Shown here: positions 11,484 through 49,737 of the stretch, one piece after another
Numbering within the stretch: position 1 is the stretch's first letter
Layout of the letters: each line of letters begins with the position of its first letter
NCBI GenBank assembly: GCA_029263125.1
Contig: JAJCYD010000003.1
Location: 1 to 49,737, forward strand
Direction: 5' to 3'
DNA length: 49,737 nucleotides
Origin: Solirubrobacteraceae bacterium
GTDB taxonomy: Bacteria > Actinomycetota > Thermoleophilia > Solirubrobacterales > Solirubrobacteraceae
Made by a program: the position numbers and the translations under genes
Notes under the pieces: model-generated
Seen by the model: only the letters and a program-made list of their open reading frames with translations
Database searches by the model: none
Told to the model about the DNA's origin: nothing

Positions 11484-13046
11484 TCAGCGCCGTCGCGCCG
11501 CGCGCAACGAGCGCATGGCGACACGCGCAAGCGGGCGCGCGCCGTTGCGCCAGCCGCGCTCACGGTCTGCGTCGCGGATCGAGCGCATGCAGGCCAGCGC
11601 CCGCCAGGCGGAGACCAGCGAGGCGTCGTAGGGCTGCCACCACGGCATCCGCCCGACCGGCGGGTCCCATGTCACGAGCTTTGGTTCGACGGACGCCCGC
11701 AGTGCGACCGCGCCGCGCGCGCGGCCGATGCCCGTGCCGTGAACCGCCCCCCACGGCAGCTGCGGCTCGGCGCGCGAGACGACGTGATCGTTCATCCACA
11801 CCATCCCTGCGCGAATCTCTCCGGCGACGCGCGTTCCCTTGTGCGGATCGGACGTCCAGACCGAGGCGCCCAGACCGCCGACGCCGGCGTTGCAGCGCGC
11901 GATCCCCTCCCGCTCGTCGTCGACCGCTTCGATCGCCAGCCACGGCCCCGGCGCGTCCTCGCGCATCAGCCGCGCGTCCGCGGGCACGCCCGTCAGCACC
12001 GCGGGAGCGAAGGTCGCGCCCTCGCGCGGGCCGCCGCAATGCAGCGTCGCGCCGCCCGCGACCGCGTCGTCGAGCAGCTCGACCAGCCGCGTCACGCGAT
12101 CGGCGGCCAACAGGGGGCCGATCTCCGTGCGCGCATCGAAGGGATCGCCGATGCGCAGGGCGCCCGCACCCGCGACGACGCCCGCGACGAAGCGCTCGAA
12201 GCGCTCGCGCAGGACGTAGGCGCGAACGAGGCTGCCGCCCGACTGCCCGGCGTTCGCGAACGCCCCCCACACCGCGCCGGCGACCGCTCGCGGAATGTTC
12301 GCGTCGGCCAGCACGAGCATCGGATCCTTGCCGCCGACCTCGATCGTCGAGCGCTTGAGCTCGCGCGCGCACGCCTCGCCGACATCGCGACCCGCCTGCG
12401 ACAGGCCCGTGAAGCGCACGTGGGCGATCTGCGGCGCGGACACAAGCGCCCGCGCCGTGCCCGCGCCGCCGTGGACGATCTGCACCAGTCCCTCGGGTAG
12501 GCCGGCGCGCACGAACACGCGACCGATGCGCTCCGCGGCCTGCGTCGCCAGCGGCGAGGGGTGAAGGACGACGCCGTTGCCGCCCATCAGCGCGACCGCC
12601 ACGTCGCCCAGCGGCGTCGCGAACGGCTCGGCGCCGGGGGTCAGCACGGCGACGACGCCCAGCGGCTCGAAGGTCAGCCGCGCGCGCTTGAACGGCTGCA
12701 GCGAGCGCGCCAGCCCGACGCGCTCGGGTGCGAGCACGCGCGGCGTCGCTTCGGCGAGCCACTGCAGGGCCTCGACGGCGGGCAGCAGCTCCATGCTCTG
12801 CGCTTCGGCCAGCGGCCGGCCCTGCTCGGCGACGATCACCTGCACGAGCTCGTCCCACTCGTCGATGACGGCCTGGGCCGCGCGCACGAGATAGCGGGCG
12901 CGATCGCTCAGTCGCAGCTGCGCCCACAGCTGCTGGACCTCCGCGGCCTCCGCCACGGCGGCCGCCACGTCCTCCGGTTGTGTGACCGGCACGCTGCCGA
13001 GGTGGCGCCCGTCGATCGGACTGACGGACTCGATCTCGCTGGCCAT
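11484..13046 (-). CDS. aldehyde dehydrogenase homologue lacking catalytic residues (probable pseudoenzyme)
   Basis: A full-length ALDH-fold protein of 520 residues with a C-terminal extension of about 55 residues. The catalytic Cys in the GQ-x-C motif is Gly270 (GQSGG; codon GGC at 12237-12239, one base from TGC). The oxyanion Asn of the usual PWN motif is missing (PGAEPF, 137-142). The cofactor-binding Lys of LKPS is His162 (LHPS). Glu236 in EVGGKDP is kept. Three independent losses argue against a sequencing error and for a non-catalytic protein. It could bind NAD or act as a scaffold. The ATG has TAAGCT seven bases upstream. It is divergent from the PD40 gene. Confidence 0.85.
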
Positions 13047-13053
13047 CGGCGTG

Positions 13054-13059
13054 AGCTTA
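13054..13059 (-). promoter_or_regulatory. -10 hexamer TAAGCT, leaderless start of the ALDH homologue
   Basis: TAAGCT on the minus strand ends 7 nt before the ATG at 13046. No Shine-Dalgarno sequence is present. Confidence 0.5.
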
Positions 13060-13085
13060 TGCCTCGACGCGCCATCCTCTGACGG

Positions 13086-14306
13086 ATGAGACGACTCCGC
13101 GCCACACGCCGGGCAGCCATCGCGACCGCGCTCGCGGCCGCCTGCCTGCCCGCCGCACCGGCGAGCGCCGACGTCTTCGACGGGCGCATCGCCTTCACGA
13201 GCTTCCGCGTCGACCCGCCCGCGGGCGTGCAGCGCAGCGGCGACATCTTCAGCATGACCCTCGGCGGCACGGATCTCACGCGCCTGACCTCCAACCCCGA
13301 GCCCGACCGCCAGGCTGACTGGTCGCCGGGCGGCACGGCGATCGCCTACTCGATCCGCAAGCCGGGCTCGCCGATCAACTACGAGGTCGCGCGGATGACG
13401 GCGGCCGGCACCGGCCTGCGCCGGCTCACGACCACCGCCGACCCGCAGGCATCGAGCCAGCCGTCGTGGTTTCCGAACTCCAAGGGCCTGCTCTTTCGTC
13501 GCAGCGGACCGGGTCTGACGTCGAGCATCTGGCAGATGGGCACAGCCGGGCAGATGCCCAAGCTGCGCTACCAGCCGCCCAACCCGCCGCTGTATCCGTC
13601 CTTCTCGCCGGACATGAAGAAGATCGTGTTCACGGCGGTCACCTCGACCGAGGGCGACACCGATCGGGGGATCTTCACCGTCAACGCCGACGGCAGCGGC
13701 CTGACGACGGTGTTCGACGTGCCCGGCTCCTATGACTCCGCGCCGGCGTGGTCGCCGAACGGCCGGCGAATCGCCTTCGAGTCAAACGCGAACATCGACG
13801 GCGCCAACCCCGAAGGGGACCTGGAGATCTGGACGATGGCCGCCGACGGATCGGGGGTCCGCCAGCTCACGCGCAACGCGCTGCATGACGAGGGGCCCGC
13901 GTGGTCGCCGGACCGCGGCCGCAAGATCGTCTACACGAGCGGACCCGACAACCTCAACGGCGACATCAACGTCATGACGGCGTCCGGCCGCCAGCTCGGC
14001 GTGCTGCAGCCGCACGAGGGCCGCGACGAGTCCCCCGACTGGCAGGCGATCCCGGCGCCGAAGACCGCGCGCCGCTGCGGCAGCGTGTCCTCGCGCGACG
14101 TGCGTGACGTGCGCGCCCGCGGGATCGGCATGATCTGCCTGCGCGCCAGGTCGATCGCGCGCCGCTGGGCGAAGGCCGGCCGCCCGACCAGGATCAGCCG
14201 CTTCAAGGTGCGCACGAAGGACTTCGGCGGGACGACGCGCGTCGTGATGACCCGCCGCGCAACCCTCGGCCGCCAGCTCGTCACGTTCCTCGACGAGTCG
14301 GGCTGA
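13086..14306 (+). CDS. secreted TolB-like PD40 beta-propeller protein
   Basis: 406 residues. A signal peptide (about 1-28, ending ASA-D) precedes a beta-propeller built from PD40/WD40-like repeats: RQADWSPGG, SQPSWFPNSKG, LYPSFSPDMKKIVF, SAPAWSPNGRRIAFES and EGPAWSPD are the repeat cores. The last about 90 residues are a basic Arg-rich domain with a possible disulfide pair (RRCGS and MICLR). This resembles periplasmic TolB-type propellers but without the TolB N-terminal domain, so a scaffold or binding role at the cell surface is likelier than Tol function. CATCCT lies 7 nt before the ATG. Confidence 0.83.
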   Translation: MRRLRATRRAAIATALAAACLPAAPASADVFDGRIAFTSFRVDPPAGVQRSGDIFSMTLGGTDLTRLTSNPEPDRQADWSPGGTAIAYSIRKPGSPINYEVARMTAAGTGLRRLTTTADPQASSQPSWFPNSKGLLFRRSGPGLTSSIWQMGTAGQMPKLRYQPPNPPLYPSFSPDMKKIVFTAVTSTEGDTDRGIFTVNADGSGLTTVFDVPGSYDSAPAWSPNGRRIAFESNANIDGANPEGDLEIWTMAADGSGVRQLTRNALHDEGPAWSPDRGRKIVYTSGPDNLNGDINVMTASGRQLGVLQPHEGRDESPDWQAIPAPKTARRCGSVSSRDVRDVRARGIGMICLRARSIARRWAKAGRPTRISRFKVRTKDFGGTTRVVMTRRATLGRQLVTFLDESG

Positions 14307-14370
14307 TCACTCCAACCCGCCCCGCGCGCGAATGGCGGCCAAGCGCGCGCGCAACTCGGCCGCCTGAAGA

Positions 14371-14406
14371 CATACGTCTTGACTTGTATACGTCAAAGCG
14401 TATGCT
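14371..14406 (+). promoter_or_regulatory. promoter and probable autorepression operator of the toxin-antitoxin locus
   Basis: A strong promoter: -35 TTGACT (14379-14384), 16-nt spacer, -10 TATGCT (14401-14406), then 6 nt to the GTG of the toxin (leaderless). Three ATACG-type half-sites overlap it: CATACG (14371-14376), the palindrome GTATAC (14386-14391) and CGTATG (14399-14404). The stretch is much more AT-rich than its surroundings. The likely repressor is the downstream Xre-type antitoxin. Confidence 0.7.
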
Positions 14407-14412
14407 CAGGTC

Positions 14413-14631
14413 GTGGCTTGGGCGATCGAATTCACCGACGAGTTCGAGCAATGGTGGCGCACACTGACCGAGACGCAACGGGACGCCATCTCGCAGCGCG
14501 TCGCTCGACTCGAAGCCAGCGGCCCGAGTCTGCGCCGCCCCCATGTCGGCGAGATCAAGGGCTCAAGGCACGACCCGCAGATGAAGGAGCTCATCTGCGA
14601 GTCCGGTCTAAGACGAGAAGGGAAGTTGTGA
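14413..14631 (+). pseudogene. HigB/RelE-type toxin, internally truncated
   Basis: A 72-residue reading frame that begins like Gp49/HigB-type toxins (WAIEFTDEFEQWW, then RPHVGEIKGSRH and MKEL), which cleave mRNA on the ribosome. Family members run to about 110 residues; here the sequence jumps from MKEL directly to a short tail ending RREGKL, missing the central beta strands that carry catalytic basic residues. The tail resembles the usual C-terminal end, so an internal deletion of roughly 120 bases is likelier than a simple stop mutation. The stop TGA shares a base with the antitoxin ATG. The product is probably inactive. Confidence 0.65.
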
Positions 14632-14996
14632 TGGCGAAGAGCTTCAACACGCTCCGCGAAAACCTCGACGAACGCCTCGACGCGCTCCCCAACGATGAGG
14701 GCAATCAGATCCGTGCGCGCAATCGCCACCAGATCCAGGCTGAGGAGACGGCCTACGCGTCCTCCCTGGCCGACCTTCGCAAGGCCCGCGCCCTGACCCA
14801 GCAGCAGCTCAGCTCGTCGCTGGGCGTCACCCAGGCGCAGGTGTCCCGTATCGAGCACCAGACGGACCTGTACCTCTCGACCCTCGCGGGCTACCTCGAG
14901 GCGATGGGCGGTCATCTCGAGCTCGTCGGCGTGTTCGATACCGGCCGGGTCTCGCTGTCGCTCGGAGCTCTCGCTGAAGAGCCGACCTCAGGTTGA
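14631..14996 (+). CDS. Xre-family antitoxin / transcriptional regulator (HigA-like)
   Basis: A 121-residue protein with a C-terminal helix-turn-helix of the Xre/Cro type: LRKARALTQQQLSSSLGVTQAQVSRIE, with the recognition helix at TQAQVSRIE. The N-terminal half is helical and charged. Coupled to the toxin remnant (TGATG overlap at 14629-14633). As in other HigBA-like modules it should neutralise the toxin and repress the promoter at 14371-14406. Since the toxin appears deleted, the antitoxin may persist as an orphan regulator. Confidence 0.82.
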   Translation: MAKSFNTLRENLDERLDALPNDEGNQIRARNRHQIQAEETAYASSLADLRKARALTQQQLSSSLGVTQAQVSRIEHQTDLYLSTLAGYLEAMGGHLELVGVFDTGRVSLSLGALAEEPTSG

Positions 14997-38526: not shown

Positions 38527-40002
38527 GTGTCCTCCGAACCCGCCGGAACCGAAGCACAGATCCTCCGCGACGTTCCCAAGCAGCTCTTCATCGCCGGCGC
38601 CTGGCGCGACGGCGCGCAGGGCGCCACGCTTGCGGTGCACGATCCCGCCACCGGCGAGACGATCGCGCAGATCGCCGACGCGACCCCCGGCGACGCGCTG
38701 GACGCGCTGACCGCTGCGTCTGACACGTTCGCGGCGTGGCGCGAGACCGCCCCGCGTGAGCGCGGCGAGATCCTGCGAAGCGCCTACGAGGCGCTCATCG
38801 AGCGCTCCGACGAGCTGGCGCTCCTGATGACCCTGGAGATGGGCAAGCCCGTCGCGGAGTCCCGCGCCGAGGTGACCTACGCCGCCGAGTTTCTGCGCTG
38901 GTACGCCGAGGAGGCGGTCCGCATCGACGGGCGTTTCAGCACCCACCAGGCCGGCGGCGGGCGACTGCTGACGATGCGCCAGCCCGTCGGCCCCTGCGTC
39001 TTCATCACGCCGTGGAACTTTCCGCTGGCGATGGGCACCCGCAAGATCGGGCCCGCGATCGCGGCCGGCTGCACGATGGTCGTCAAGCCGGCCAAGCTCA
39101 CGCCGCTGTCGATGCTCGCGCTCGCGCAGGTGTTCGAGCGGGCCGGGCTGCCGGCCGGCGTGCTGAACGTCGTCACGGCGTCCTCCTCCGGCGAGGTCAT
39201 GGAGCCGCTGATCCGCGATCCGCGCACGCGCAAGCTGTCCTTCACCGGCTCGACGGAGGTCGGCCGGGCCCTGATGGCGCAGGCCTCCGAGCAGATCCTG
39301 CGCGTCTCGATGGAGCTCGGCGGCAACGCCCCGTTCGTCGTGTTCGAGGACGCCGATCTGCAGGATGCCCTGGATGGCGCGATCGTCGCCAAGATGCGCA
39401 ACATCGGCGAGGCCTGCACGGCGGCCAACCGCTTCCACGTCCACGAGTCCATCGCGCCGCAGTTCGCCGACGGGCTCGCCAAGCGCATGGGCGCCATGAC
39501 GATCGGTCGTGGCACGCAGGACGGCGTCGAGGTCGGTCCGCTCATCGACGAGGACCAGCTTGCGAAGGTGCAGGAGCTCGTCGACGACGCCGTCGGGCAG
39601 GGCGCGCGGGTGCTGTGCGGTGGGCGCCGTGTCGACGGCCCGGGGACCTTCTACGAGCCGACGGTGCTGGCCGGCGTCCCGGCAGGAGCGCGCCTGCTGC
39701 GCGAGGAGATCTTCGGCCCGGTCGCTCCGGTGCGCGCGTTCTCCAGCGAGGAGCAGGCGATCGCCGAGGCCAACGACACGCAGTTCGGCCTGGTCGCCTA
39801 CCTCTACACGGCCGACCTCGCCCGGGCCCTGCGCGTCAGCGAGCGCCTGGAGACCGGCATGGTCGGCCTCAACCAGGGCATGGTGTCCAACGCGGGCGCG
39901 CCGTTCGGCGGGATCAAGCACTCGGGCATCGGCCGCGAGGGCGGACCCGAGGGGATCGGGGAGTACCTGGAGACCAAGTACGTCGCGCTGCCCGCGCCGT
40001 GA
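38527..40002 (+). CDS. gabD: NAD(P)-dependent succinate-semialdehyde dehydrogenase
   Basis: A 491-residue ALDH with full catalytic apparatus: Asn in TPWNFPLA, Lys in VVKPAKLTP, Glu in SMELGGNAPF and the nucleophile Cys297 in GEACTAANR. The GEAC motif with TAANR and the C-terminal FGGIKHSGIGREGG place it in the GabD subgroup, which oxidises succinic semialdehyde to succinate in the GABA shunt. It contrasts with the inactive-looking homologue at 11484-13046. A GTG start. Confidence 0.92.
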   Translation: MSSEPAGTEAQILRDVPKQLFIAGAWRDGAQGATLAVHDPATGETIAQIADATPGDALDALTAASDTFAAWRETAPRERGEILRSAYEALIERSDELALLMTLEMGKPVAESRAEVTYAAEFLRWYAEEAVRIDGRFSTHQAGGGRLLTMRQPVGPCVFITPWNFPLAMGTRKIGPAIAAGCTMVVKPAKLTPLSMLALAQVFERAGLPAGVLNVVTASSSGEVMEPLIRDPRTRKLSFTGSTEVGRALMAQASEQILRVSMELGGNAPFVVFEDADLQDALDGAIVAKMRNIGEACTAANRFHVHESIAPQFADGLAKRMGAMTIGRGTQDGVEVGPLIDEDQLAKVQELVDDAVGQGARVLCGGRRVDGPGTFYEPTVLAGVPAGARLLREEIFGPVAPVRAFSSEEQAIAEANDTQFGLVAYLYTADLARALRVSERLETGMVGLNQGMVSNAGAPFGGIKHSGIGREGGPEGIGEYLETKYVALPAP

Positions 40003-40346: not shown

Positions 40347-40931
40347 TCAGTCGGCGACGGGGTCGATCGCCGGCAGCCCGTCGATGCTGACCGCGTTGCG
40401 CTGCCGAACATACGCGGCGATCTCCCGCTCGCCCCCGACCGCGAGCTTCTTGCGCGCCCACAGCGGCGCGTGCTCGCGCTGGCCGTCGGGTGTCATCAGC
40501 GGCACGCCGTAGCCGCAGGACGTGGCGATGCGGCTCACGTGCACGCGAACGATCGCGCGCCGGCCCTCGGGAATCGACGCGTCTTCGAAGCCGGCCTGCG
40601 CGAGCAGCGCCGCATACTCGGCGTCCTCAGGCATGAGCACCTCGCCGCGGCCGTGGAGGCGCACGATCTTCGGCGGACCCTGAAACGCGCACAGCATCAC
40701 GACGATCCGGCCGTTCTCGCGCACATGGGCGATCGTCTCGGCGCCGCTGCCGACGATGTCCAGGTACGCGACGGTCGCCGGGTCCAGGATGCGCAGCGAG
40801 CCGATCGGTCCCTTGGGCGAGACGTTGACGTGCCCGTCCCCGGCCAGTGGCGCGCTGGCGACGAAGAACAGGGCCTGTCCTGCGATCCACTGCGCCAGGT
40901 CGGCGTCGATCTCGTCGTACTGCCGGCCCAT
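40347..40931 (-). CDS. pyridoxamine 5'-phosphate oxidase-family FMN protein
   Basis: A 194-residue split-barrel flavoprotein. Seen: FFVASAPLAGDGHVNVSPKG near the N-terminus, LDIVGSGAETIAHVRENGRIVVMLCAF (core barrel) and RLHGRGEVL. This subgroup lacks the PdxH signature and usually acts as a general FMN- or F420-binding reductase. First gene of a two-gene unit with the SUI1 protein. A TAGGCG hexamer lies five bases upstream of the ATG. Confidence 0.85.
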   Translation of the reverse strand: MGRQYDEIDADLAQWIAGQALFFVASAPLAGDGHVNVSPKGPIGSLRILDPATVAYLDIVGSGAETIAHVRENGRIVVMLCAFQGPPKIVRLHGRGEVLMPEDAEYAALLAQAGFEDASIPEGRRAIVRVHVSRIATSCGYGVPLMTPDGQREHAPLWARKKLAVGGEREIAAYVRQRNAVSIDGLPAIDPVAD

Positions 40932-41075
40932 ATCAGCGCCTACGCGCCACGAGCGGCTGGGGGTGTGGCTTGCTCATCCATTCGGAACGCTACATTCTGC
41001 TGGCCGCGACGTCACGCGGCGACACGTTCGCGCCCGCACCCGTTGCGTGCGTGCACGCAGACCTGGGGGAGCGCG

Positions 41076-41099
41076 ATGACACGGAACCGGCACGAGTGA
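41076..41099 (+). CDS. 8-codon upstream mini-ORF ahead of the second GH2 gene
   Basis: ATG at 41076 encodes MTRNRHE and stops with TGA at 41097-41099, overlapping the GTG start of the glycosidase (GTGA). GGGGGAG lies five bases before the ATG. It may be a leader that delivers ribosomes to the weak GTG start, or chance. Confidence 0.35.
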   Translation: MTRNRHE

Positions 41100-43009
41100 G
41101 CAAAGGACTGATCGCGGCGCTTGTCGGCGTCCTCTGCACGATCGCGCTCGCCGCCGTGGCCTGGTTCGTCTCCGTGTCGGCCGCCGCGCCGGATCCGGCG
41201 CCGAACTCGGTCCTGCTCGCGCCGCACGGCGGCACGCCCAGGATCTACGAGGGTCCGGGCGACCGGGCCCAGCTGGACGGCCTGTGGCGCTTCAAGAAGG
41301 ACCTCAAGAACCGCGGGATCGACAAGGGCTACCCCAAGGGCACGTTCGACGGCGACCTCGTGCGCGTGCCCTTCGTCCCCGACGCGACGAGGATCAGCGG
41401 CCGCAAGGGCCTGTTCGTCTTCCGCGGCTTCGTGGGCTGGTATCGCACGAAGCTCGACGCGCCGGTGGACGGCACGTACGTGATCCGCTTCGAATCGGTC
41501 AACCATCGCGTGCGGGTCTACCTCGACGGCAAGGAGGTCGGCCGCCACAAGGGTGAGTACCTGCCCTTCGAGGTTCGCGTCCCCTTGAAGGCCGGCGTGC
41601 GCCACGCGCTCGTCGTGCGCGCCGACTGGCGTGGGCCGACGGCGATGAAGCGCGACGGCTGGCACCGGCTGTGGTTCAACTTCGGCGGGATCAACCGCGG
41701 CGTGAGCGTGCGCCGCGTGGGAGCCAGCGAGATCTCCCTTCCGGAGATGAACACGACGCTGACCGCGGGAACGGCGACGGTCGACCTGAAGATCCACGTG
41801 CGCAACAACTCCGCGCCCCGCAACCTGGGAGCCACGGGCGCGCTGGTCCGCGGCGACCGCCGGATCGAGTTCGAGTTTCCCGCCAAGCCGTCGTCGACGG
41901 GCGGAACCCAGGTGCTGCAGACCCAGGTGCGCGTGCCGGATCCCCTGCTGTGGTCACCCGGCACGCCGAACCTCTGGAACCTCGAGCTCGAGGTCCCGGG
42001 CGAGTCGACCTACCGCGCCCGCGTCGGCATACGCGAGGTCCGAACGCAGGGCACCGACCTGCTGCTCAACGGCAAGGAGATCCGCCTGCGCGGCGCATCG
42101 ATCCACGAGGACGCCTTCGGCCGCGGCGACGCGCTGCGGCCCGCCGACCAGGACCGCCTCGTCGCCGAGCTCAAGGCGATCGGCGCCAACGCGACGCGCT
42201 CGCAGCATCCGCTGGATCCGGGGCTTCTCGAGCGCCTGGACGCCGCCGGCATCATGATCTGGCAGGGCATCGGCCCCACCGATGCCCCCGGCAACTGGAC
42301 CTCCGTCGGCAAGCGGCGCCACCGCGCCGCGAAGGCACGAGCCCGGACGAGCGTGCGCCAGGGGCAGATCCATCCATCGATCATCACCTGGAACCTCGCC
42401 AACGAGGTAGCCGGCGGCGGCCATGACGGCGGGCAGATCGCCTACATCGACAACATGGCCAAGGAGCTGCACAAGCGCGACCCGAGCCGGCCCGTCGCGC
42501 TGGACATCTGGGGCGCGCACCCGCCGCGCAGGCCGTCGAAGATCTACCGCAACATCGACATGATCGGCTGGACGAACTACATCGGCTGGTACGAGTCGAC
42601 GAATGCCAGCTCCGACCAGCTGCGCAAGGAGATCAAGACGCGCCTGTCCGACCTGCGCGACGTGTTCCCCGACAAGGTCATCGCGGTGACGGAGTTCGGC
42701 GCGGAGGCCAACGGGCGCAACCCGACGGCGGCGCCCGGCGGCTACGGCTTTCAGGCCCACCTGCTCGACCTGCACCTGAAAACCTACGCGAGCTTCCCGA
42801 ACCTGGCCGGCGCGCTGATCTGGAACCTGCGCGACTTCGCGGTCTCGCCGACGTTCTTCGGCGGATCGATTCGCAAGCAGGTCCCGAACATCAAGCTGCT
42901 GCGCGGCATCAACCAGAAGGGCCTGTTCGACGTGCGCTACAAGGCCAAGCCCGCCGTGACGAAGGTCGGCAAGCGCTTCTCCGCGCAGGCCGCCGCCGAA
43001 GACCGCTAG
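41096..43009 (+). CDS. membrane-anchored glycoside hydrolase family 2 enzyme
   Basis: 637 residues. An N-terminal signal anchor (about 4-25), a GH2 sugar-binding domain (about 55-200: WYRTKL, HRVRVYLDGKEVGRHKGEY, WHRLWFNFGGINRG), an Ig-like domain and a TIM barrel with acid/base Glu437 (ANEVAG) and nucleophile Glu533 (VTEFGAEA). Same design as the protein at 32069-34096 (shared LRGASI-x-ED and ANxTR-x-x motifs), but anchored at the N-terminus. GTG at 41096 is chosen since it starts just before the anchor; upstream in-frame sequence belongs to the divergent promoter region. Confidence 0.87.
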   Translation: MSKGLIAALVGVLCTIALAAVAWFVSVSAAAPDPAPNSVLLAPHGGTPRIYEGPGDRAQLDGLWRFKKDLKNRGIDKGYPKGTFDGDLVRVPFVPDATRISGRKGLFVFRGFVGWYRTKLDAPVDGTYVIRFESVNHRVRVYLDGKEVGRHKGEYLPFEVRVPLKAGVRHALVVRADWRGPTAMKRDGWHRLWFNFGGINRGVSVRRVGASEISLPEMNTTLTAGTATVDLKIHVRNNSAPRNLGATGALVRGDRRIEFEFPAKPSSTGGTQVLQTQVRVPDPLLWSPGTPNLWNLELEVPGESTYRARVGIREVRTQGTDLLLNGKEIRLRGASIHEDAFGRGDALRPADQDRLVAELKAIGANATRSQHPLDPGLLERLDAAGIMIWQGIGPTDAPGNWTSVGKRRHRAAKARARTSVRQGQIHPSIITWNLANEVAGGGHDGGQIAYIDNMAKELHKRDPSRPVALDIWGAHPPRRPSKIYRNIDMIGWTNYIGWYESTNASSDQLRKEIKTRLSDLRDVFPDKVIAVTEFGAEANGRNPTAAPGGYGFQAHLLDLHLKTYASFPNLAGALIWNLRDFAVSPTFFGGSIRKQVPNIKLLRGINQKGLFDVRYKAKPAVTKVGKRFSAQAAAEDR

Positions 43010-43021
43010 ACCACGCGTCCG

Positions 43022-44353
43022 TCAGACGAAGCGCCGCAGGCCCGCGCGCGCTGCGGCGCCGAAGACGGCGATCAGCACGGCGAGGTGCGCCAGCGACTGC
43101 CCGATCGGCGGTGACGAGCCGTTGACCGCGGCATCCAGCGCGTTCAGCGCGGGCTTGAAGGGGAACACGGCCGAGATCACGCGGATCACGTCGTAGAGCG
43201 CCGGGGACACGCCGCCACTGGGGACGAGCGCGAGGAACGCGAGCGGCAGCGACAGCAGGAAGGCCAGCAGCGATGCGGCCCGCACCTCGCGTGCGAGGCT
43301 GCCGATCGCCACGCCGAGCGCCGCGAACGCGAGCGCGCTGGCGCCGAGCGCCAGCACCCACATCCAGGCTCTGCTCCAGTTCAGCGGCACGAACGCGCTG
43401 ATCCCTGCCAGCATGACGAACGACACGGCGAACGCGCACAACGCCGACAGCACGATCTTCGCGATGATCAGCCGCCCGCCGGGAACCAGCCCCCGCGCCA
43501 GCCGCCCGAAGGTGTTCTCCTCGCGCTCGAGCGCCAGCAGCCCCGAGGCGAGCAGGACGCAGACGAACATCAGCGAGATCGTCACCGCGACCGCGACGGC
43601 GAAGGCATCCAGCGGCGTGCGGCGCCCGCTGAGAATGGTGTTCTCGACCACGACCGGCCGCTCGACGGTGTTCAGGACGTCCTTGGCCAGGCCGGCGTTC
43701 GTCGACACGATCGTCGCGAACTCCTGCACCGGAACGAGGTCCTCGCGAGTCTCCGGATACTTCTTGGCCACCGAGTCGACGAGCGACTTGGCGCGCTTGA
43801 GTCCCAAGATCTGCAGATTCGTGCCGATGATGTTCAGCGTCCCGCCCTCGAGGATCACGTCGATGTAGCCCGAGGCCAGGCGGTTGACCTGCTTGGCCAG
43901 CGATGCCTCGGCCTGTGCCAGGGTCGAGGAGATCGTGTTGCGCACGAAGGACTGCTTGAGGGCATCGCCGTTGTAGATGACCTCGACGCTCGCCGACGAG
44001 AAGCCGGAGTTCGAGAGCCTCGTCGTGAAGTCCGGCGGGATGATCAGCGCGGCGAGGACCGCGCCCGAGCGGACCTTCTGCATGGCTTCGATGCGGTTGT
44101 CGACGTCGACGCGGTCGATCGCCTCGAAGAGCTTGCCGGTGTACGTGTCGACGTCGAGCTTCTGGTCGCCGATCGTGATCGTGCTGCGGTTCTCCGGTAC
44201 CTGGTTGAGGAACGCCACGCGCGGCTTGTCCGGGCCGCTGGACAGCGCCAAGCCCATGAGGGTCGCGATCGCGATCGGGTAGACGATCAGCAGCCCGAGC
44301 AGCAGCTTGGAGCGCCACAGGATCTGCAGGTCCTTCAGCAGCAGCCAGCGCAT
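43022..44353 (-). CDS. ABC-2 type transporter permease
   Basis: 443 residues: one N-terminal membrane helix (about 15-36), a large extracytoplasmic domain (about 40-240), then five helices (about 245-440). This is the layout of YhgE/Pip- and NatB-type ABC-2 exporters. LLALEREENTFGRLARGLVPGGRLIIAK is the typical cytoplasmic coupling loop. Its ATPase partner is the last third of the chimeric gene just upstream (stop 9 nt away). Substrate unknown. Confidence 0.88.
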   Translation of the reverse strand: MRWLLLKDLQILWRSKLLLGLLIVYPIAIATLMGLALSSGPDKPRVAFLNQVPENRSTITIGDQKLDVDTYTGKLFEAIDRVDVDNRIEAMQKVRSGAVLAALIIPPDFTTRLSNSGFSSASVEVIYNGDALKQSFVRNTISSTLAQAEASLAKQVNRLASGYIDVILEGGTLNIIGTNLQILGLKRAKSLVDSVAKKYPETREDLVPVQEFATIVSTNAGLAKDVLNTVERPVVVENTILSGRRTPLDAFAVAVAVTISLMFVCVLLASGLLALEREENTFGRLARGLVPGGRLIIAKIVLSALCAFAVSFVMLAGISAFVPLNWSRAWMWVLALGASALAFAALGVAIGSLAREVRAASLLAFLLSLPLAFLALVPSGGVSPALYDVIRVISAVFPFKPALNALDAAVNGSSPPIGQSLAHLAVLIAVFGAAARAGLRRFV

Positions 44354-44362
44354 CGGCTTCTC

Positions 44363-45949
44363 CTAGTGCCCCTGGGCGCGGAGGAACGCGACGAAGGCCT
44401 GCTCCATGTCCTCGCCCCGTGCGGCGCCCGAGTCGGCGTGCAGCTGGGCGGGGGTTCCGTTGAACAGCAGGTCGCCATCGGCGAGCACGAGCACGCGGTC
44501 AGCATGACGCTCGGCCTCTGAGATGTCGTGCGTGGCGAAGACGACGCTCGTCCCGCGGTCGGTCAACCCGGTGATGAAGCCCCACAGGCGCTGGCGCTGG
44601 CGCGGATCCAGCGCGCCCGACGGCTCGTCGAGCAGCAGCACGGGCGGATCGGCCAGCAGGCCGACGGCGATGTTCACACGCTGGCGGTTGCCGCCCGACA
44701 GGCTGCCCAGCTCGTCGTTGGCGCGATCGGTCAGCGCCGTCTGCTCGAGCATCCGCACCACGGTGGCCTCGATGTCCGCCACCCCCTCCAGCCGTGCGAA
44801 CAGGCGCAGGTTCTGCGCGACCGTGAGCTTGGAGTACACCGCGGTCTGCTGGGGGACCCAGCCGATGCGCCTGTCGGCGTTCGGCCCCTGCTGGCGGACC
44901 GTCCCGCCGTCGGGCTTGCGGATGTCGCCGAGAATCGACAGCAGCGTCGTCTTGCCCGCACCGTTGGGGCCGATGATGCCAATGCGATCGCCGCGCAGGA
45001 TGCGGGTCGAAAAATCCTCAACGATGACCAGTTCGCTGCCATCCTGTTTCCGAAACGATTTCGAGACATTCTTGGCGTCGACCACGAGGCGGCTCTTGAT
45101 CGAGCCTTCTTCGGCCTCAAGCTTCATGTCCTGGGGGCGGTCGGCGATGATGGCGGCGCGGGACGCGCGCATGGTGTCAAGCTTGCGCAGCCGTCCCTGG
45201 TTGCGCTTGCGCCGGGCCGTCACACCGCGCAGCAGCCAGCGGGACTCATCAGCGATCCTTGAGTTCAGCCGCTCGAGCGTCTTCTGCTCGACCTCCAGTA
45301 CTTCCTCCTGCCAGGCGTCGAAGCCGGCAAAACCGTGTGCATTGACCCGCAACCGGCCGCGGTCGAGCCAGAGCGTGCGGCCGCCCGGGCCCGCCGTGAT
45401 GTTCTCAAGAAACGTCCGGTCATGGCTGACCGTCAGGATGGCGCCGCGGAACACACGGATCTCATTTTCAAGCCACTGGATCGCGGAGAGATCGAGGTGA
45501 TTGGTCGGCTCATCAAGCAGCAGCACATCGGGCTCGCCGGCAAAGGCGCGGGCGATCGCGGCCCGCCGGTGCTCGCCGCCCGAGAGATGGCGCATGTCGC
45601 GCGACCCGTCGAGGGCCACCTGGGACAGCCAGCTGTCGATCTCGTGGTCCGGGTGGCCGTCCCCCGTGCCGCCCGCCATGACAAAGTCGCGCACGGTCTG
45701 GTCCGGGTCGACCGCGGGGTCTTGCTCGAGCCGGTGGATGCGCAGACCAGGTTCGATGTAGAGGTCGCCGCTGTCGAACTCGATCCGCCCGGTGACCACG
45801 TTCATCATGGTCGACTTGCCCGACCCGTTGCGGCCGACAAGGCAGGCCCGGTCGCCGCGGTGGACGATCAGTTCGAGGCCGTTGAAGAGCGTCTTGCCGC
45901 CAAAAGCAAGCTTGCCCTCTTTCAGGGTGATGACGGGTGGTTCAGCCAT
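44363..45949 (-). CDS. chimeric frame: ABC-F (Uup-like) N-terminal part joined to an ABC-2 exporter ATPase
   Basis: 528 residues in two unrelated parts. Residues 1 to about 326 are an alphaproteobacterial ABC-F protein: first Walker A GRNGSGKST, LSGGEHRR, LLLDEPTNHLDL, the linker RWLLRGVTARRKRNQGRLRK, then the start of the second ATPase domain. Walker A GPNGAGK (327-333) is common to both. From about 334 the sequence is a drug-exporter-type ATPase (LSGGNRQRVNIA, LLLDEPSGALDP, FATHDISEAERHADR) that fits the neighbouring permease. The ABC-F part lacks its second domain and the exporter ATPase lacks its own first about 40 residues. The frame is open, but it is most likely an assembly artefact. 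Confidence 0.85.
   Translation of the reverse strand: MAEPPVITLKEGKLAFGGKTLFNGLELIVHRGDRACLVGRNGSGKSTMMNVVTGRIEFDSGDLYIEPGLRIHRLEQDPAVDPDQTVRDFVMAGGTGDGHPDHEIDSWLSQVALDGSRDMRHLSGGEHRRAAIARAFAGEPDVLLLDEPTNHLDLSAIQWLENEIRVFRGAILTVSHDRTFLENITAGPGGRTLWLDRGRLRVNAHGFAGFDAWQEEVLEVEQKTLERLNSRIADESRWLLRGVTARRKRNQGRLRKLDTMRASRAAIIADRPQDMKLEAEEGSIKSRLVVDAKNVSKSFRKQDGSELVIVEDFSTRILRGDRIGIIGPNGAGKTTLLSILGDIRKPDGGTVRQQGPNADRRIGWVPQQTAVYSKLTVAQNLRLFARLEGVADIEATVVRMLEQTALTDRANDELGSLSGGNRQRVNIAVGLLADPPVLLLDEPSGALDPRQRQRLWGFITGLTDRGTSVVFATHDISEAERHADRVLVLADGDLLFNGTPAQLHADSGAARGEDMEQAFVAFLRAQGH
44941..44980. other. junction between actinobacterial and alphaproteobacterial sequence
   Basis: The interval encodes the Walker A segment shared by both halves of the fused frame. 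To the left, genes, codon use and leaderless hexamers are actinobacterial. To the right, codons become AT-richer (for example GAT TTT TCG, AAA TCG TTT CGG) and all families look proteobacterial. The exact breakpoint cannot be set because the shared motif hides it. Confidence 0.8.
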
Positions 45950-46158
45950 GCGGGTTTATAGGCCCCTGATGCTGCAGGCGCGAAGGATTCCGGAGCAGAA
46001 TGTTAGCATTTGTTATCATTTTTTGGTCTTCAGGGCGCGTGATTTGTTGCGGCGCAGCATGGGGTCGGGATGCGCCATAAATAGGCATTATGTCATATAT
46101 GATGCGGGGCCCCCGCAAACAAGGGATTGAAGGCGCTGCCAGGCAATTGCCGTCGCCC
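45950..46158. other. AT-rich intergenic region, alphaproteobacterial segment
   Basis: No gene is seen. On the minus strand TATAAA lies 5 nt before the ABC-F ATG, and a short GC hairpin (GCGGG-GCC-CCCGC near 46113-46125) lies between this gene and the stop of the TerB/DnaJ gene. The AT content is far above that of any intergenic region left of 44,900. Confidence 0.4.
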
Positions 46159-46182
46159 GCTAGATCCCGCGCTAGATCCCGC
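46159..46182. repeat. 12-bp perfect tandem duplication at the end of the TerB/DnaJ gene
   Basis: GCTAGATCCCGC occurs twice in a row. On the coding (minus) strand it duplicates the last two codons and the stop (Gly-Ile-TAG), giving two TAG stops 12 bases apart. Confidence 0.75.
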
Positions 46183-46909
46183 GCTCGGCGCGGATCTTCT
46201 CCCAGGCGCCGTTGATGGTGGCGAGGTGATCGTTGGCCTGGCTCACCAGTTCCTCCGGCATGCCGTCGGCGACCATGCGGTCGGGATGGTGTTCCTTGAT
46301 GAGCTTGCGCCAGGCGGCCTTGACCTCGGCGTCGGTGGCCTCGTGGTCGACACCGAGCACCACATAGGGGTCGGCCTCGTCCGGGCCCATGTGCTGGGCC
46401 TCGATGCGGCGGAAATCGGCTTCCCCGAAGCCCAGATTCCTGGCCACCGTGGCGAGATATTCCTTTTCGCCCGGGTGATAGACGCCGTCGGCGGCGGCGA
46501 TGTGGAAGAGCGCGCCCATCAGCTCCTCGAGCACGGCCGGGTTGTCGCGGAACATCTTCGCGACCTGGCGGGCGTAGGGTTCGAAGCCGCGCGCGTCCCG
46601 CTTGGCGATGTCGAAGACCCTCGCGACGTTCTTCGATTCTTCCGGCGGCACCCGGAAGACCTGCTTGAAGGCCTCGATTTCCTCGCGGGTGACCACGCCG
46701 TCGGCTTTCGCCATCTTCGCCCCGAGCGCGATGCAGGCGATGGTGAAGGCGACCGGGCGGGCGTCCGGGTCGTCGGCCGTGAGCCGCCGGGCTTCGGAAC
46801 CGGCGTATTTGTCGACCGCATGGCCGCCCAGCACGCCGATCAGCGCCCCGATCGGCCCGCCAATCGCGAATCCCGCCGCCCCGCCAAGTATCTTGCCCCA
46901 GATGCTCAA
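46172..46909 (-). CDS. djlA: TerB and DnaJ domain co-chaperone (DjlA-like)
   Basis: 245 residues. An N-terminal glycine-rich hydrophobic hairpin (about 5-30, GGAAGFAIGGPIGALIG) may insert in the membrane. A TerB-like helical domain (about 50-165) with acidic DGVVTREEIE and DGVYHPGEKE loops follows, then a C-terminal J domain (about 180-245) with the HPD motif (208-210), which stimulates DnaK ATPase. The same order is found in DjlA proteins of alphaproteobacteria. First gene from the divergent region 46910-47082. Confidence 0.9.
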   Translation of the reverse strand: MSIWGKILGGAAGFAIGGPIGALIGVLGGHAVDKYAGSEARRLTADDPDARPVAFTIACIALGAKMAKADGVVTREEIEAFKQVFRVPPEESKNVARVFDIAKRDARGFEPYARQVAKMFRDNPAVLEELMGALFHIAAADGVYHPGEKEYLATVARNLGFGEADFRRIEAQHMGPDEADPYVVLGVDHEATDAEVKAAWRKLIKEHHPDRMVADGMPEELVSQANDHLATINGAWEKIRAERGI

Positions 46910-46971
46910 GGCCCGGAAACCCTCACTAATCTAATGCAGCGCACAATAAGTCCTCAAAACTGTCACAAAAT

Positions 46972-46990
46972 CAACATTGAAAGAATGTTG
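46972..46990. promoter_or_regulatory. 19-bp palindrome in a divergent promoter region
   Basis: CAACATT-GAAAG-AATGTTG: perfect 7-bp arms. It lies between the divergent TerB/DnaJ and GNAT genes. The octamer GCACAATA occurs on both sides as a direct repeat (46941-46948 and 46995-47002). This layout suits a dimeric repressor or activator acting on both genes. Confidence 0.5.
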
Positions 46991-47082
46991 CGCCGCACAA
47001 TATGGTACTTACAGCTGTCTCGGTGGATGCCGGCCCGAATTTCGGGCCGTGCCGCCGGTCCGCAGCCGAAAGGATGGATGCC

Positions 47083-47760
47083 ATGACGGCCATACGCAAG
47101 CTTCTCCCGTTCGAATATCCGCTCTACGCGGCGCATCTGACGCGGCTCACGCCCGAGGAACGGGCCTGCCGCTTCATGGGTACCGTGAAGGACGCGGCGA
47201 TGGAGGCGCATGTCCGCGATATCCAGCGCCCCGGCAACTTCGTGATGGGCGCCTTTGTCGACGGCTGGCTGCGGGGCGGCGCGGAACTGGTGGTGACCAG
47301 CCCGGTGACTCCGTCCCTGCGGCACGGCGAGGCGGAGCTCGCGGTGACGGTCGAGGGCGCGCATCAGGGCCAGGGCATCGGCGGCGAGCTGGTGCGCCGG
47401 GTGCTGCTGGCGTCCCGCAACCGGGGCATCGAGACGGTGCATACGGTGAGCCTGGTCGAGAACCTGCGTCTGCGCCGGATCGTCAGCGATCTCGGCGGCG
47501 AGGTGAAGTGCCACTACGGCATGTGCGAGGGCAATATCGCGCTGACGCTCCCGACCCAGGTCTCGTTGATCGAGGAAGCGATGGATGAAGGGGCGGCGAT
47601 CGTCGGCGACATGCTGGACCGCATTGGCTGGTCCGGCCCGCGCGAGGAGGTGGTGGCGGCACTCACGCCGGCTGCCGCCCGCAATTGCAACGCGGCCGTC
47701 CGGGCCGACAATGTCGTGCCGCTGCGCCCGGAGCGAAAGCCCGAGGGCGTGCGCGGCTGA
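47083..47760 (+). CDS. GNAT-family N-acetyltransferase
   Basis: A 225-residue protein with a GNAT core. Motif A, which binds the acetyl-CoA pyrophosphate, is EGAHQGQGIGGELVRRVL, preceded by AELAVTVEGA (strand 4). SLVENLRLRRIVSDLGG is motif B. The ATG at 47083 has AAAGGA seven or eight bases upstream; another ATG nine bases earlier is possible. Acceptor unknown. Codon use differs from the genes left of 44,960. Confidence 0.85.
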   Translation: MTAIRKLLPFEYPLYAAHLTRLTPEERACRFMGTVKDAAMEAHVRDIQRPGNFVMGAFVDGWLRGGAELVVTSPVTPSLRHGEAELAVTVEGAHQGQGIGGELVRRVLLASRNRGIETVHTVSLVENLRLRRIVSDLGGEVKCHYGMCEGNIALTLPTQVSLIEEAMDEGAAIVGDMLDRIGWSGPREEVVAALTPAAARNCNAAVRADNVVPLRPERKPEGVRG

Positions 47761-47787
47761 GCGGATCTGTCCTGGCGGGCTGGTTGG

Positions 47788-47826
47788 CGGCCCTGATTCG
47801 CGGCCCTGATTCGCGGCCCTAATTCA
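47788..47826. repeat. 13-bp tandem repeat, three copies
   Basis: CGGCCCTGATTCG is repeated at 47788-47800, 47801-47813 and, with two changes, 47814-47826. It fills the gap between the convergent GNAT and DUF3750 genes and includes the stop of the latter. Confidence 0.75.
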
Positions 47827-48616
47827 CGGACTGTGGAGCCGGCGGTTTTGCAACCGCGGTGCTCTTGAGGCTGAGGCGGCCCCAACCGGGCAGCTTGACC
47901 GCAAGATCCGCGGGATCGACGCCGAAGGTCATGGCCAGCAGATTGACCTCGAGCCCTTCCTCGGTGCCGGCGAGCACGCCCGCGAGTCCCCAGAGCGAGA
48001 CCTGCCAGCCGGTGCCCGAGGGCGTGCGGGCGACAAAGCTGCCGGGGATGTAATCCTTGCCGACAGCGGTCGCGGGCAGGTCGAGGCGAAGCTCCGGCAC
48101 CTGGCGCGCGATATGGGCGACGAAGGTGTTGGAATTCGGCCCCGGCCAGACGTGATAGACGTCCGTGTAGGGATACGTCTTGATGGCGGCGAGGATCTTC
48201 GGGATCGCGGCCGCCGCGTCCGTGCCGCGGAGATCGAACAGCAGCTCCGGCGCATGGCCGAACCAGGAGCCGTCCGGCGGGCGGTAGCTGGCGGCGATGG
48301 CATTGCGCCCGGAGGCGACCCGCCAGCCCGAAACCTCGTAAACCGTGAATTTCGCAGCACCCGCGGGTTTGATCGCGATCCAGGGATGCACCCCGAAGGC
48401 GCCGCGCCAGTTGTAGGCGCGCGCCGCATAGACCTGCACGATTGCCTCGCGGTGCACGCGCGGGTCGGGGGCGAGCCGGGTGCTGGTGCTGACCGCGTCC
48501 CGCCAATGGGTGTCGAGGTCGAGCCGGCCCGACATCAGCACCGTTGCCGGGCCGACGAGGCTGAACACCAGAAACAGGGACGCCGTGGTGAGTATCTTTT
48601 TCATGCCTTTGAACAT
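47819..48616 (-). CDS. DUF3750 family protein
   Basis: 265 residues with an N-terminal signal anchor (about 6-25, ILTTASLFLVFSLVG) and one globular domain. Family-type segments are VQVYAARAYNWRGAFGVHPWIA, FGHAPELLFDLRG, YHVWPGPNSNTFVAHIAR and GKDYIPG. It is known mainly from proteobacteria and has no assigned function; the conserved His and Asn-Thr-Phe suggest a periplasmic hydrolase-like pocket, but this is a guess. ATG at 48616 or 48604. Confidence 0.78.
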   Translation of the reverse strand: MFKGMKKILTTASLFLVFSLVGPATVLMSGRLDLDTHWRDAVSTSTRLAPDPRVHREAIVQVYAARAYNWRGAFGVHPWIAIKPAGAAKFTVYEVSGWRVASGRNAIAASYRPPDGSWFGHAPELLFDLRGTDAAAAIPKILAAIKTYPYTDVYHVWPGPNSNTFVAHIARQVPELRLDLPATAVGKDYIPGSFVARTPSGTGWQVSLWGLAGVLAGTEEGLEVNLLAMTFGVDPADLAVKLPGWGRLSLKSTAVAKPPAPQSVN

Positions 48617-48727
48617 GGCCCCGGTTAGTGGCCGCAGAATACGGCCAAGGGCAGGGCGGAGTTGTGCAACTTTGCCTGAGCCCGGATGAAGAATGTGCAA
48701 AGTCCGGAAAAAGCCAGGAGCCGGATG

Positions 48728-49435
48728 TTACTGGCCGGCTTCGAGCTGGTAGCCGGATTTCTCGACCGTCTCGCCGATCTTCTGCGTGAGCGCCTCGACC
48801 ATGGCCTCGGCGACTTCCCGGTGGCCGCCCGCGAAATGGCCCTCGATGGAGCCCTCCCACATCTTGGCCCCGCCAGGCTTGGCGATGATGATCTGCAAGC
48901 GGTGCAACGTCGGACGGGCGGCGGGGACCCGGCTGTCGGGCTTGCCGAGCTTTCCGTCCTTGACCGGCAGTTTCACGCCCGACTCAGCGGTTTTGACCTT
49001 GCCGTCGACGATGCCGATCCTGATCTCGGGGCTGCCCTTGTCGCTGTCCTGGAAGGCCTTCTTGCGCGCCTCGTACCCCGGGTCGATGTAGTCGAACTGC
49101 ACAACATAGAGCCCGTCGTCGGCGAGCTTGAAGCCCCGCCGGCGCAGCGCCTCGGAAATGCGGTCGCGGATGCTCTCGTTGGTGGCCGACGAGATCGCGG
49201 CCTCCGGCACCATCGTGGCGCCCTTGAGCAGCGGCGCGTAGGACACCGCGTGAATGGTGGCGTTGGGCTTTTCCTCAGCCGCGGTCTGGCTGATGGCCCC
49301 GTTGGCGGACTGCGCCGAGGCGGGCATCACCGATGCGGTGAGTAACAAGGCGAGGGCCGCCACGAGAGCGGTCGCCGCGCCGAGCCAACAGGTGCGGACG
49401 CGGACGAAACGCAAGCGTTGCAGGGTTGCGGACAT
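48728..49435 (-). CDS. secreted protein, unknown function; paralogue of the next gene
   Basis: 235 residues with a signal peptide (about 1-41, cleavage near PASA-QS). The mature part shows a DUF4136-like pattern: a helix (NESIRDRISEALRRRGFKL), a strand with YVVQFDYIDPGYEA, and a conserved C-terminal MWEGSIEG...AEAMVEAL. The ATG at 49435, not the upstream 49486, fits the signal peptide and has GGAAGG upstream. It is followed upstream by a paralogue with the same WxGSIEG ending. Confidence 0.72.
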   Translation of the reverse strand: MSATLQRLRFVRVRTCWLGAATALVAALALLLTASVMPASAQSANGAISQTAAEEKPNATIHAVSYAPLLKGATMVPEAAISSATNESIRDRISEALRRRGFKLADDGLYVVQFDYIDPGYEARKKAFQDSDKGSPEIRIGIVDGKVKTAESGVKLPVKDGKLGKPDSRVPAARPTLHRLQIIIAKPGGAKMWEGSIEGHFAGGHREVAEAMVEALTQKIGETVEKSGYQLEAGQ

Positions 49436-49548
49436 GAGAAACCAGCCTTCCGGAATGCGGTTGCAGGCGCGTGCCTGCCCAGACATATGGGGTGTCCGGC
49501 GACCGGCGGCAATATCTCAGGTCAAGAGTTCCGGGCAATCGGCAGAAC

Positions 49549-49737
49549 TCAGCTGCCGGCCTTCACCTCGACGAAGTGCGGGCGTACGGTTTGCCCAAGC
49601 TTGTTCAACAGGATACGCGCCATCGCGTCGGCCACGGTCTGCTGGCTGCCGCCGACGATGCCCTCGATGGAGCCGTCCCAGCGCTTGCCGCTGCGGGTGT
49701 CGGCGACCGAAATCTCAAGCCGCCGGCGCTCGCGCAC
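49549..49737 (-). CDS. C-terminal part of a secreted paralogue, cut by the window edge
   Basis: The visible 62 residues include RWDGSIEG, ADAMARILL and a C-terminal EVKAGS, aligning with MWEGSIEG, AEAMVEAL and QLEAGQ of the adjacent gene. The 5' end lies beyond 49737. The two genes are a tandem duplicate pair separated by 113 bases. Confidence 0.7.
   Translation of the reverse strand: MRERRRLEISVADTRSGKRWDGSIEGIVGGSQQTVADAMARILLNKLGQTVRPHFVEVKAGS

What the first reader, a model, noticed from the sequence alone, without database searches (positions are those of the whole stretch)
44900..45100. Two genomes joined in frame at a Walker A motif
Left of about 44,960 everything is actinobacterial; right of it everything looks alphaproteobacterial. 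The joint lies within GPNGAGK, the one stretch an ABC-F protein and an ABC-2 exporter ATPase would share. Neither half is complete: the ABC-F protein lacks its second ATPase domain and the exporter ATPase lacks its N-terminus. This is the pattern of an assembly chimera at a conserved k-mer. A true fusion by transfer would be new but would also have to explain the 4.8 kb of foreign flanking genes.
Basis: partly seen in the sequence, partly recalled or inferred. Interest (0 to 1): 0.9.

Follow-up and report, generated by a model that had tools for sequence, protein, structure and literature searches.

The report
Assembly chimera at an ATPase motif
The apparent fusion of an ABC-F protein with an exporter ATPase is an assembly error at a 32-base sequence shared by ABC genes: the true other half of the ATPase lies on another contig of the same genome, so this is an artefact and not a new gene.

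Summary
ORF 44363-45949 (-) joins the N-terminal part of an alphaproteobacterial Uup-like ABC-F protein to the C-terminal part of a Solirubrobacteraceae-type ABC-2 exporter ATPase, in frame at GPNGAGK. Everything from the joint to the contig end (49737) is foreign to the host genus. It is an assembly chimera, and this can be shown without reads. All five intact homologues (four genus mates, one own paralogue) match the window only up to 44974-44996. The missing N-terminus is on contig C34 of the same genome (ATPase start, lipoprotein, fumarase). Homology of the same relatives to C34 begins at exactly 12151. C34 and the window share exactly 32 nt (window 44946-44977 = C34 12151-12182) and differ on both sides. 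C34 is itself chimeric there, with a 12.15-kb tail running to its own end. Joining the two native halves at the 32-mer gives an intact 247-aa ATPase, 72-76% identical end to end to genus homologues. It also reunites GH2 and fumarase genes, neighbours in all six genus mates. A real fusion would need two separate foreign joins at one 32-mer of one gene. What remains useful is a worked way of spotting and undoing a P-loop chimera.

The parts
38527..40002 (+). Native arm: aldehyde dehydrogenase (Aldedh)
   Evidence: Pfam PF00171, 547 bits; collinear in genus mates G001 and G005, 73-80% aa identity in the loci fetched, with DNA matches also in G002, G003, G004 and G006
40347..40931 (-). Native arm: pyridoxamine 5'-phosphate oxidase family protein
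   Evidence: Pfam PF01243; collinear in G003, G004, G006
40847..43009 (+). Native arm: glycoside hydrolase family 2 protein; next to fumarase in all six genus mates
   Evidence: Pfam PF02836/PF02837/PF00703; homologues in six genus mates followed by the fumarase gene
43022..44353 (-). Native arm: ABC-2 exporter permease
   Evidence: Pfam PF12698, 79 bits; 64-67% aa identity to cassette permeases of genus mates
44363..44945 (-). Native arm: C-terminal part of the ABC-2 exporter ATPase, from after Walker A to the stop
   Evidence: Genus-mate homology ends at 44974-44996; joined to the C34 N-terminus it gives an intact 247-aa ATPase
44946..44977 (-). Junction: 32-mer ATCATCGGCCCCAACGGTGCGGGCAAGACGAC (IIGPNGAGKT), identical to G000:C34:12151-12182; the two contigs differ on both sides of it
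   Evidence: the longest exact match to any other held sequence outside these two contigs is 23 nt
44978..45949 (-). Foreign arm: N-terminal part of an alphaproteobacterial Uup-like ABC-F protein, broken at Walker A of its second ATPase domain
   Evidence: 72% aa identity over the 61 aa before the joint to the intact 608-aa Uup-like protein of G196; DNA match to 44939
46172..46909 (-). Foreign arm: TerB-DnaJ (DjlA-like) protein
   Evidence: Pfam TerB and DnaJ; directly upstream of Uup in G196; DNA matches in many genomes of the alphaproteobacterial class
47002..47760 (+). Foreign arm: GNAT acetyltransferase
   Evidence: Pfam PF00583; same divergent position in G196
47819..48700 (-). Foreign arm: DUF3750 protein
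   Evidence: Pfam PF12570, 165 bits; 75% DNA identity over 1.4 kb to G076
48728..49486 (-). Foreign arm: secreted-type protein of unknown family; the contig ends at 49737
   Evidence: No Pfam match; part of the 75% identical stretch in G076; contig length 49737

Best explanation
The window is an assembly chimera and the fusion protein does not exist. The real Solirubrobacteraceae chromosome carries an operon fumarase > lipoprotein > exporter ATPase > permease next to a GH2 gene. Around the ATPase's Walker A codons a 32-base sequence is shared by ABC genes of several community members. The assembly took wrong exits at this shared sequence in both directions. Contig C3 (the window) runs from GH2, permease and the ATPase C-terminus into an alphaproteobacterial uup gene. 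Contig C34 runs from fumarase, lipoprotein and the ATPase N-terminus into another ABC-2 ATPase and 12.15 kb of other DNA. The reading frame stays open because both genes encode the same motif at the same codon phase. Shown: the breakpoints, the shared 32-mer, the missing half on C34, and the fit of the halves. Inferred: that an assembler made the joins (no reads), and that C34:1-12150 comes from another organism.
For: (1) All five intact homologues (four genus mates, one own paralogue) match the window up to 44974-44996 and no further, and match C34 starting at exactly 12151. In L102 coordinates the window half covers 1579-1972 and the C34 half starts at 1922, so the two overlap at the motif only. 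(2) The window and C34 share exactly 32 nt and differ on both sides. (3) The join of the two native halves at the 32-mer is in frame: 247 aa, 72-76% identical over 237-247 aa to genus-mate ATPases and the own paralogue; the C34 N-terminus alone is 65-79% identical to theirs. (4) In genus mates the ATPase lies between lipoprotein and permease; the window has only the permease side and C34 only the lipoprotein side. (5) GH2 (window) and fumarase (C34) are neighbours in all six genus mates, so C3 and C34 should be adjacent chromosomal pieces. (6) Both non-native tails run to a contig end: 44978-49737 of 49737 and C34 1-12150. (7) The right arm has intact alphaproteobacterial gene order with a full-length 608-aa uup gene in G196. 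(8) Composition of the tails is at or below the low edge of native segments.
Against: No reads, coverage or assembly graph were available. The operon order fumarase-lipoprotein-ATPase-permease is itself not found intact elsewhere: genus mates have the cassette at another locus, and the family search found no genome with lipoprotein and fumarase matched together. C34:1-12150 was not assigned to an organism and could be native but unshared. The tetranucleotide differences are modest.
Confidence: 0.96

Rival explanations
1. A true gene fusion: alphaproteobacterial DNA was transferred into this Solirubrobacteraceae genome and recombined at the Walker A homology, making an ABC-F/exporter hybrid protein.
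For: Open reading frame through the joint; recombination at short homology is a known process (own knowledge). No read data exclude it directly.
Against: The displaced native half is not lost but sits on C34, joined at the identical 32-mer to a different stretch of DNA. A real event would need two separate foreign insertions breaking one gene at the same 32 bases, both with far ends off the contig, leaving no intact copy of the operon in a genome of 95% completeness. No other genome with the joint was seen.
Confidence: 0.02
2. An intragenomic rearrangement (translocation between ABC genes of one genome), so that the two contigs are real but rearranged and the right arm is an older acquired island.
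For: The own genome has several paralogous cassettes (C1, C29, C34).
Against: The right arm keeps alphaproteobacterial gene order from Uup outward and has only short, mostly ABC-motif matches elsewhere in the own genome. A balanced exchange would leave the Uup C-terminus on C34; instead C34 carries an ABC-2 ATPase with its own permeases.
Confidence: 0.01
3. Mis-binning alone: a wholly foreign contig placed in the bin.
For: The bin has an estimated 2.05% contamination.
Against: The left 30-43 kb is collinear with six genus mates, so the contig is native for most of its length and the fault lies inside it.
Confidence: 0.01

Closest known systems
Interspecies misassembly (chimeric contig) in metagenome-assembled genomes
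   Same: Fragments of different organisms joined in one contig. GUNC (PMC8201837) describes misassembly of fragments from multiple sources, giving chimeric contigs, as one of the two main computational error sources in MAGs, and calls it relatively rare.
   Different: Here the joint is within one codon-aligned motif, so it leaves an open reading frame, and both mis-joined halves of the native gene are recovered from the same bin.
Uup-type ABC-F ATPase (NCBIfam NF050005)
   Same: N-terminal part up to Walker A of the second domain; intact relative of 608 aa in G196
   Different: The second ATPase domain after Walker A and the C-terminal part are missing; 337 bits against a cut-off of 900
ABC-2 exporter ATPase of the lipoprotein-ATPase-permease cassette in this genus
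   Same: C-terminal part, followed by its permease
   Different: The N-terminus is absent from the window; it lies on G000:C34:12151-12311

Membership tests
Assembly chimera at a shared k-mer | Homology to each parent lineage ends inside one exactly shared stretch | tested here: met
   Genus mates to 44974-44996, alphaproteobacterial relative to 44939 from the other side; shared 32-mer 44946-44977
Assembly chimera at a shared k-mer | The native continuation exists elsewhere in the assembly and begins at the same stretch | tested here: met
   C34 from 12151: ATPase N-terminus, lipoprotein, fumarase
Assembly chimera at a shared k-mer | Foreign DNA runs to a contig end | tested here: met
   Window 44978-49737 of 49737 and C34 1-12150
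Assembly chimera at a shared k-mer | Coverage step or no spanning read pairs at the joint | not testable with these tools
   No reads or assembly graph held
Uup-type ABC-F protein | Two complete ABC-F ATPase domains and score above the family cut-off | tested here: not met
   337 bits against 900; second domain replaced after Walker A
Genuine transferred fusion gene | Same joint in an independent genome | tested here: not met
   Not in 6 genus mates nor in 385 genomes of the alphaproteobacterial class or the 2 of the nearest order searched with the right arm; those searches were not exhaustive

The most novel reading that the evidence does not exclude
A real recombination at the Walker A codons produced an ABC-F/ABC-2 exporter hybrid ATPase in this genome, made from DNA of two bacterial phyla.
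Probability: 0.02. Interest if true: 0.6.

Novelty: not a real feature. Interest (0 to 1): 0.1.

Why it matters
Left uncorrected, this contig would yield a false fusion protein, a false case of transfer between phyla and false host genes; a second contig of the same bin (C34) carries the same fault. The case shows that P-loop codons of ABC genes can act as a hub for misjoins in a GC-rich community, that such joints stay open in frame and so escape gene-level checks, and that gene order in genus mates can prove and undo them without reads.

Tried and rejected
A scan of viral contigs for a 44-base junction pattern found nothing. A single-protein search of genome contigs gave mostly general ABC hits but did supply the Solirubrobacterales relatives. 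The ortholog of the window's left arm in genus mates was at first expected to contain the cassette; it does not, which led to the fumarase and then to C34. Tetranucleotide correlation was tried as an independent test and judged only supportive, since the lowest native segments (0.534) come close to the foreign arms (0.48-0.53). The family search (146 genomes) for an intact lipoprotein-fumarase arrangement found only separate matches, so the reunited gene order has no outside precedent. Assigning C34:1-12150 to a phylum by comparison with held loci gave only distant hits (best ATPase hit 37%, MoxR 48% to the host genus itself). No structure prediction was run: a foldable hybrid would not tell chimera from fusion. 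Mis-binning of the whole contig was rejected on the gene order of the left arm.

Full report
What is there. The window is the whole of contig C3 (49,737 bases) of a genome of 3.75 Mb in 53 contigs, 95.3% complete and 2.05% contaminated. ORF 44363-45949 (-) encodes 528 aa. Its first part looks like a Uup-type ABC-F protein and its last 200 residues like the ATPase of an ABC-2 exporter whose permease follows at 43022-44353.

Where the joint lies. Four genus mates have intact homologues of the exporter ATPase, and the own genome has an intact paralogue on C1. Their DNA matches the window at 80-83% up to 44974-44996 and stops. From the other side, the uup gene of the alphaproteobacterial genome G196 matches at 73% up to 44939. 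The crossover is therefore inside about 44939-44977, over the codons of IIGPNGAGKT.

What the right arm is. Against 385 genomes of the class of Xanthobacter (G011, reached through L032), 61 match the right arm at E of 1e-40 or better; the best, G076, is 75-83% identical in pieces. In G196 the order is GNAT (divergent), TerB-DnaJ, then an intact 608-aa Uup-like gene, the same order as in the window. In the own genome the right arm has only short matches elsewhere, mostly ABC motifs. It runs to the end of the contig.

What the left arm is. One genus mate (G004, contig C41 of 5,891 bases) appears to be the Solirubrobacteraceae MAG contig JAUXSD010000298.1 (same length, same genes), so the host is most likely a Solirubrobacteraceae species (inference). 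The stretch 30-43 kb is collinear with genus mates, including ALDH, PNPOx and GH2. In all six genus mates GH2 is followed by a fumarase gene (identity of the gene by Pfam Lyase_1 and FumaraseC_C), not by an exporter cassette.

Finding the missing half. In genus mates the cassette reads lipoprotein, ATPase, permease. The lipoprotein query found copies on C1, C29, C34 and others in the own genome, and the fumarase and its neighbours lie on C34. On C34 the order is fumarase 13313-14652 (-), lipoprotein 12314-13381 (-), then an ATPase starting at 12311 (-). That ATPase begins like the genus cassette ATPase but turns into a different ABC-2 ATPase after Walker A. Homology of genus mates to C34 starts at exactly 12151. 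The segment C34:1-12150, with VWA, BatA, DUF58, MoxR and two ABC-2 permeases, has no genus match apart from the MoxR gene.

The reciprocal fit. The window and C34 share exactly 32 bases, ATCATCGGCCCCAACGGTGCGGGCAAGACGAC, at window 44946-44977 and C34 12151-12182, and diverge on both sides. No other held sequence outside these two contigs shares more than 23 bases with this part of the window. Joined at the 32-mer, the C34 N-terminus and the window C-terminus give an in-frame ATPase of 247 aa, 72-76% identical to the genus-mate ATPases and the own paralogue over 237-247 aa. The window's own version is 50% identical to Uup only by including the general ABC similarity of its exporter half, and the C34 version falls to 38-42% against the cassette ATPases. 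Joined in this way, GH2 and fumarase become neighbours again across the cassette, as they are neighbours in the genus mates. The fumarase is inverted relative to GH2 here, as it is in G001.

Interpretation. Two contigs of one bin each carry half of one native gene, cut at the same 32-mer, each continued by different DNA to a contig end. A shared-k-mer misassembly predicts precisely this. A biological fusion would require two separate foreign joins at one 32-mer of one gene, plus loss of every intact copy. The in-frame joint is not evidence for a gene, since both parents encode the same motif in the same codon phase. I put the chimera at 0.96. GUNC's authors list misassembly as one of the two main computational error sources in MAGs, and relatively rare (PMC8201837).

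Limits. No reads or assembly graph were available. The donor of C34:1-12150 is not identified, and that stretch could still be native but unshared. The composition test supports the case but is weak on its own. The reunited operon order has no outside precedent among 146 family genomes. That the bin is a metagenome assembly is inferred from its fragmentation and its foreign DNA.

Noticed in passing
G000:C34:1-12150 (L163:1-12150): A second chimera in the same bin: a VWA/BatA/DUF58/MoxR cluster with ABC-2 permeases and an ATPase C-terminus is attached at the same 32-mer to the native lipoprotein-fumarase side. Its origin is not identified.
   Followed up: partly
G000:C29, about 87632-90076 (L103:7634-10076): A paralogous cassette has lipoprotein and permease directly next to each other with no ATPase gene between them, either a real loss or another assembly fault.
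   Followed up: no
L180 (G001) and G000:C34:13313-14652: The fumarase gene is inverted relative to GH2 in G000 and G001 but not in G002-G006, a small local rearrangement within the genus.
   Followed up: no
window 43009-43022: The exporter permease lies 12 bases from the convergent GH2 gene, at a place where no genus mate has a cassette; the cassette seems to be a species-level addition beside the inverted fumarase.
   Followed up: partly
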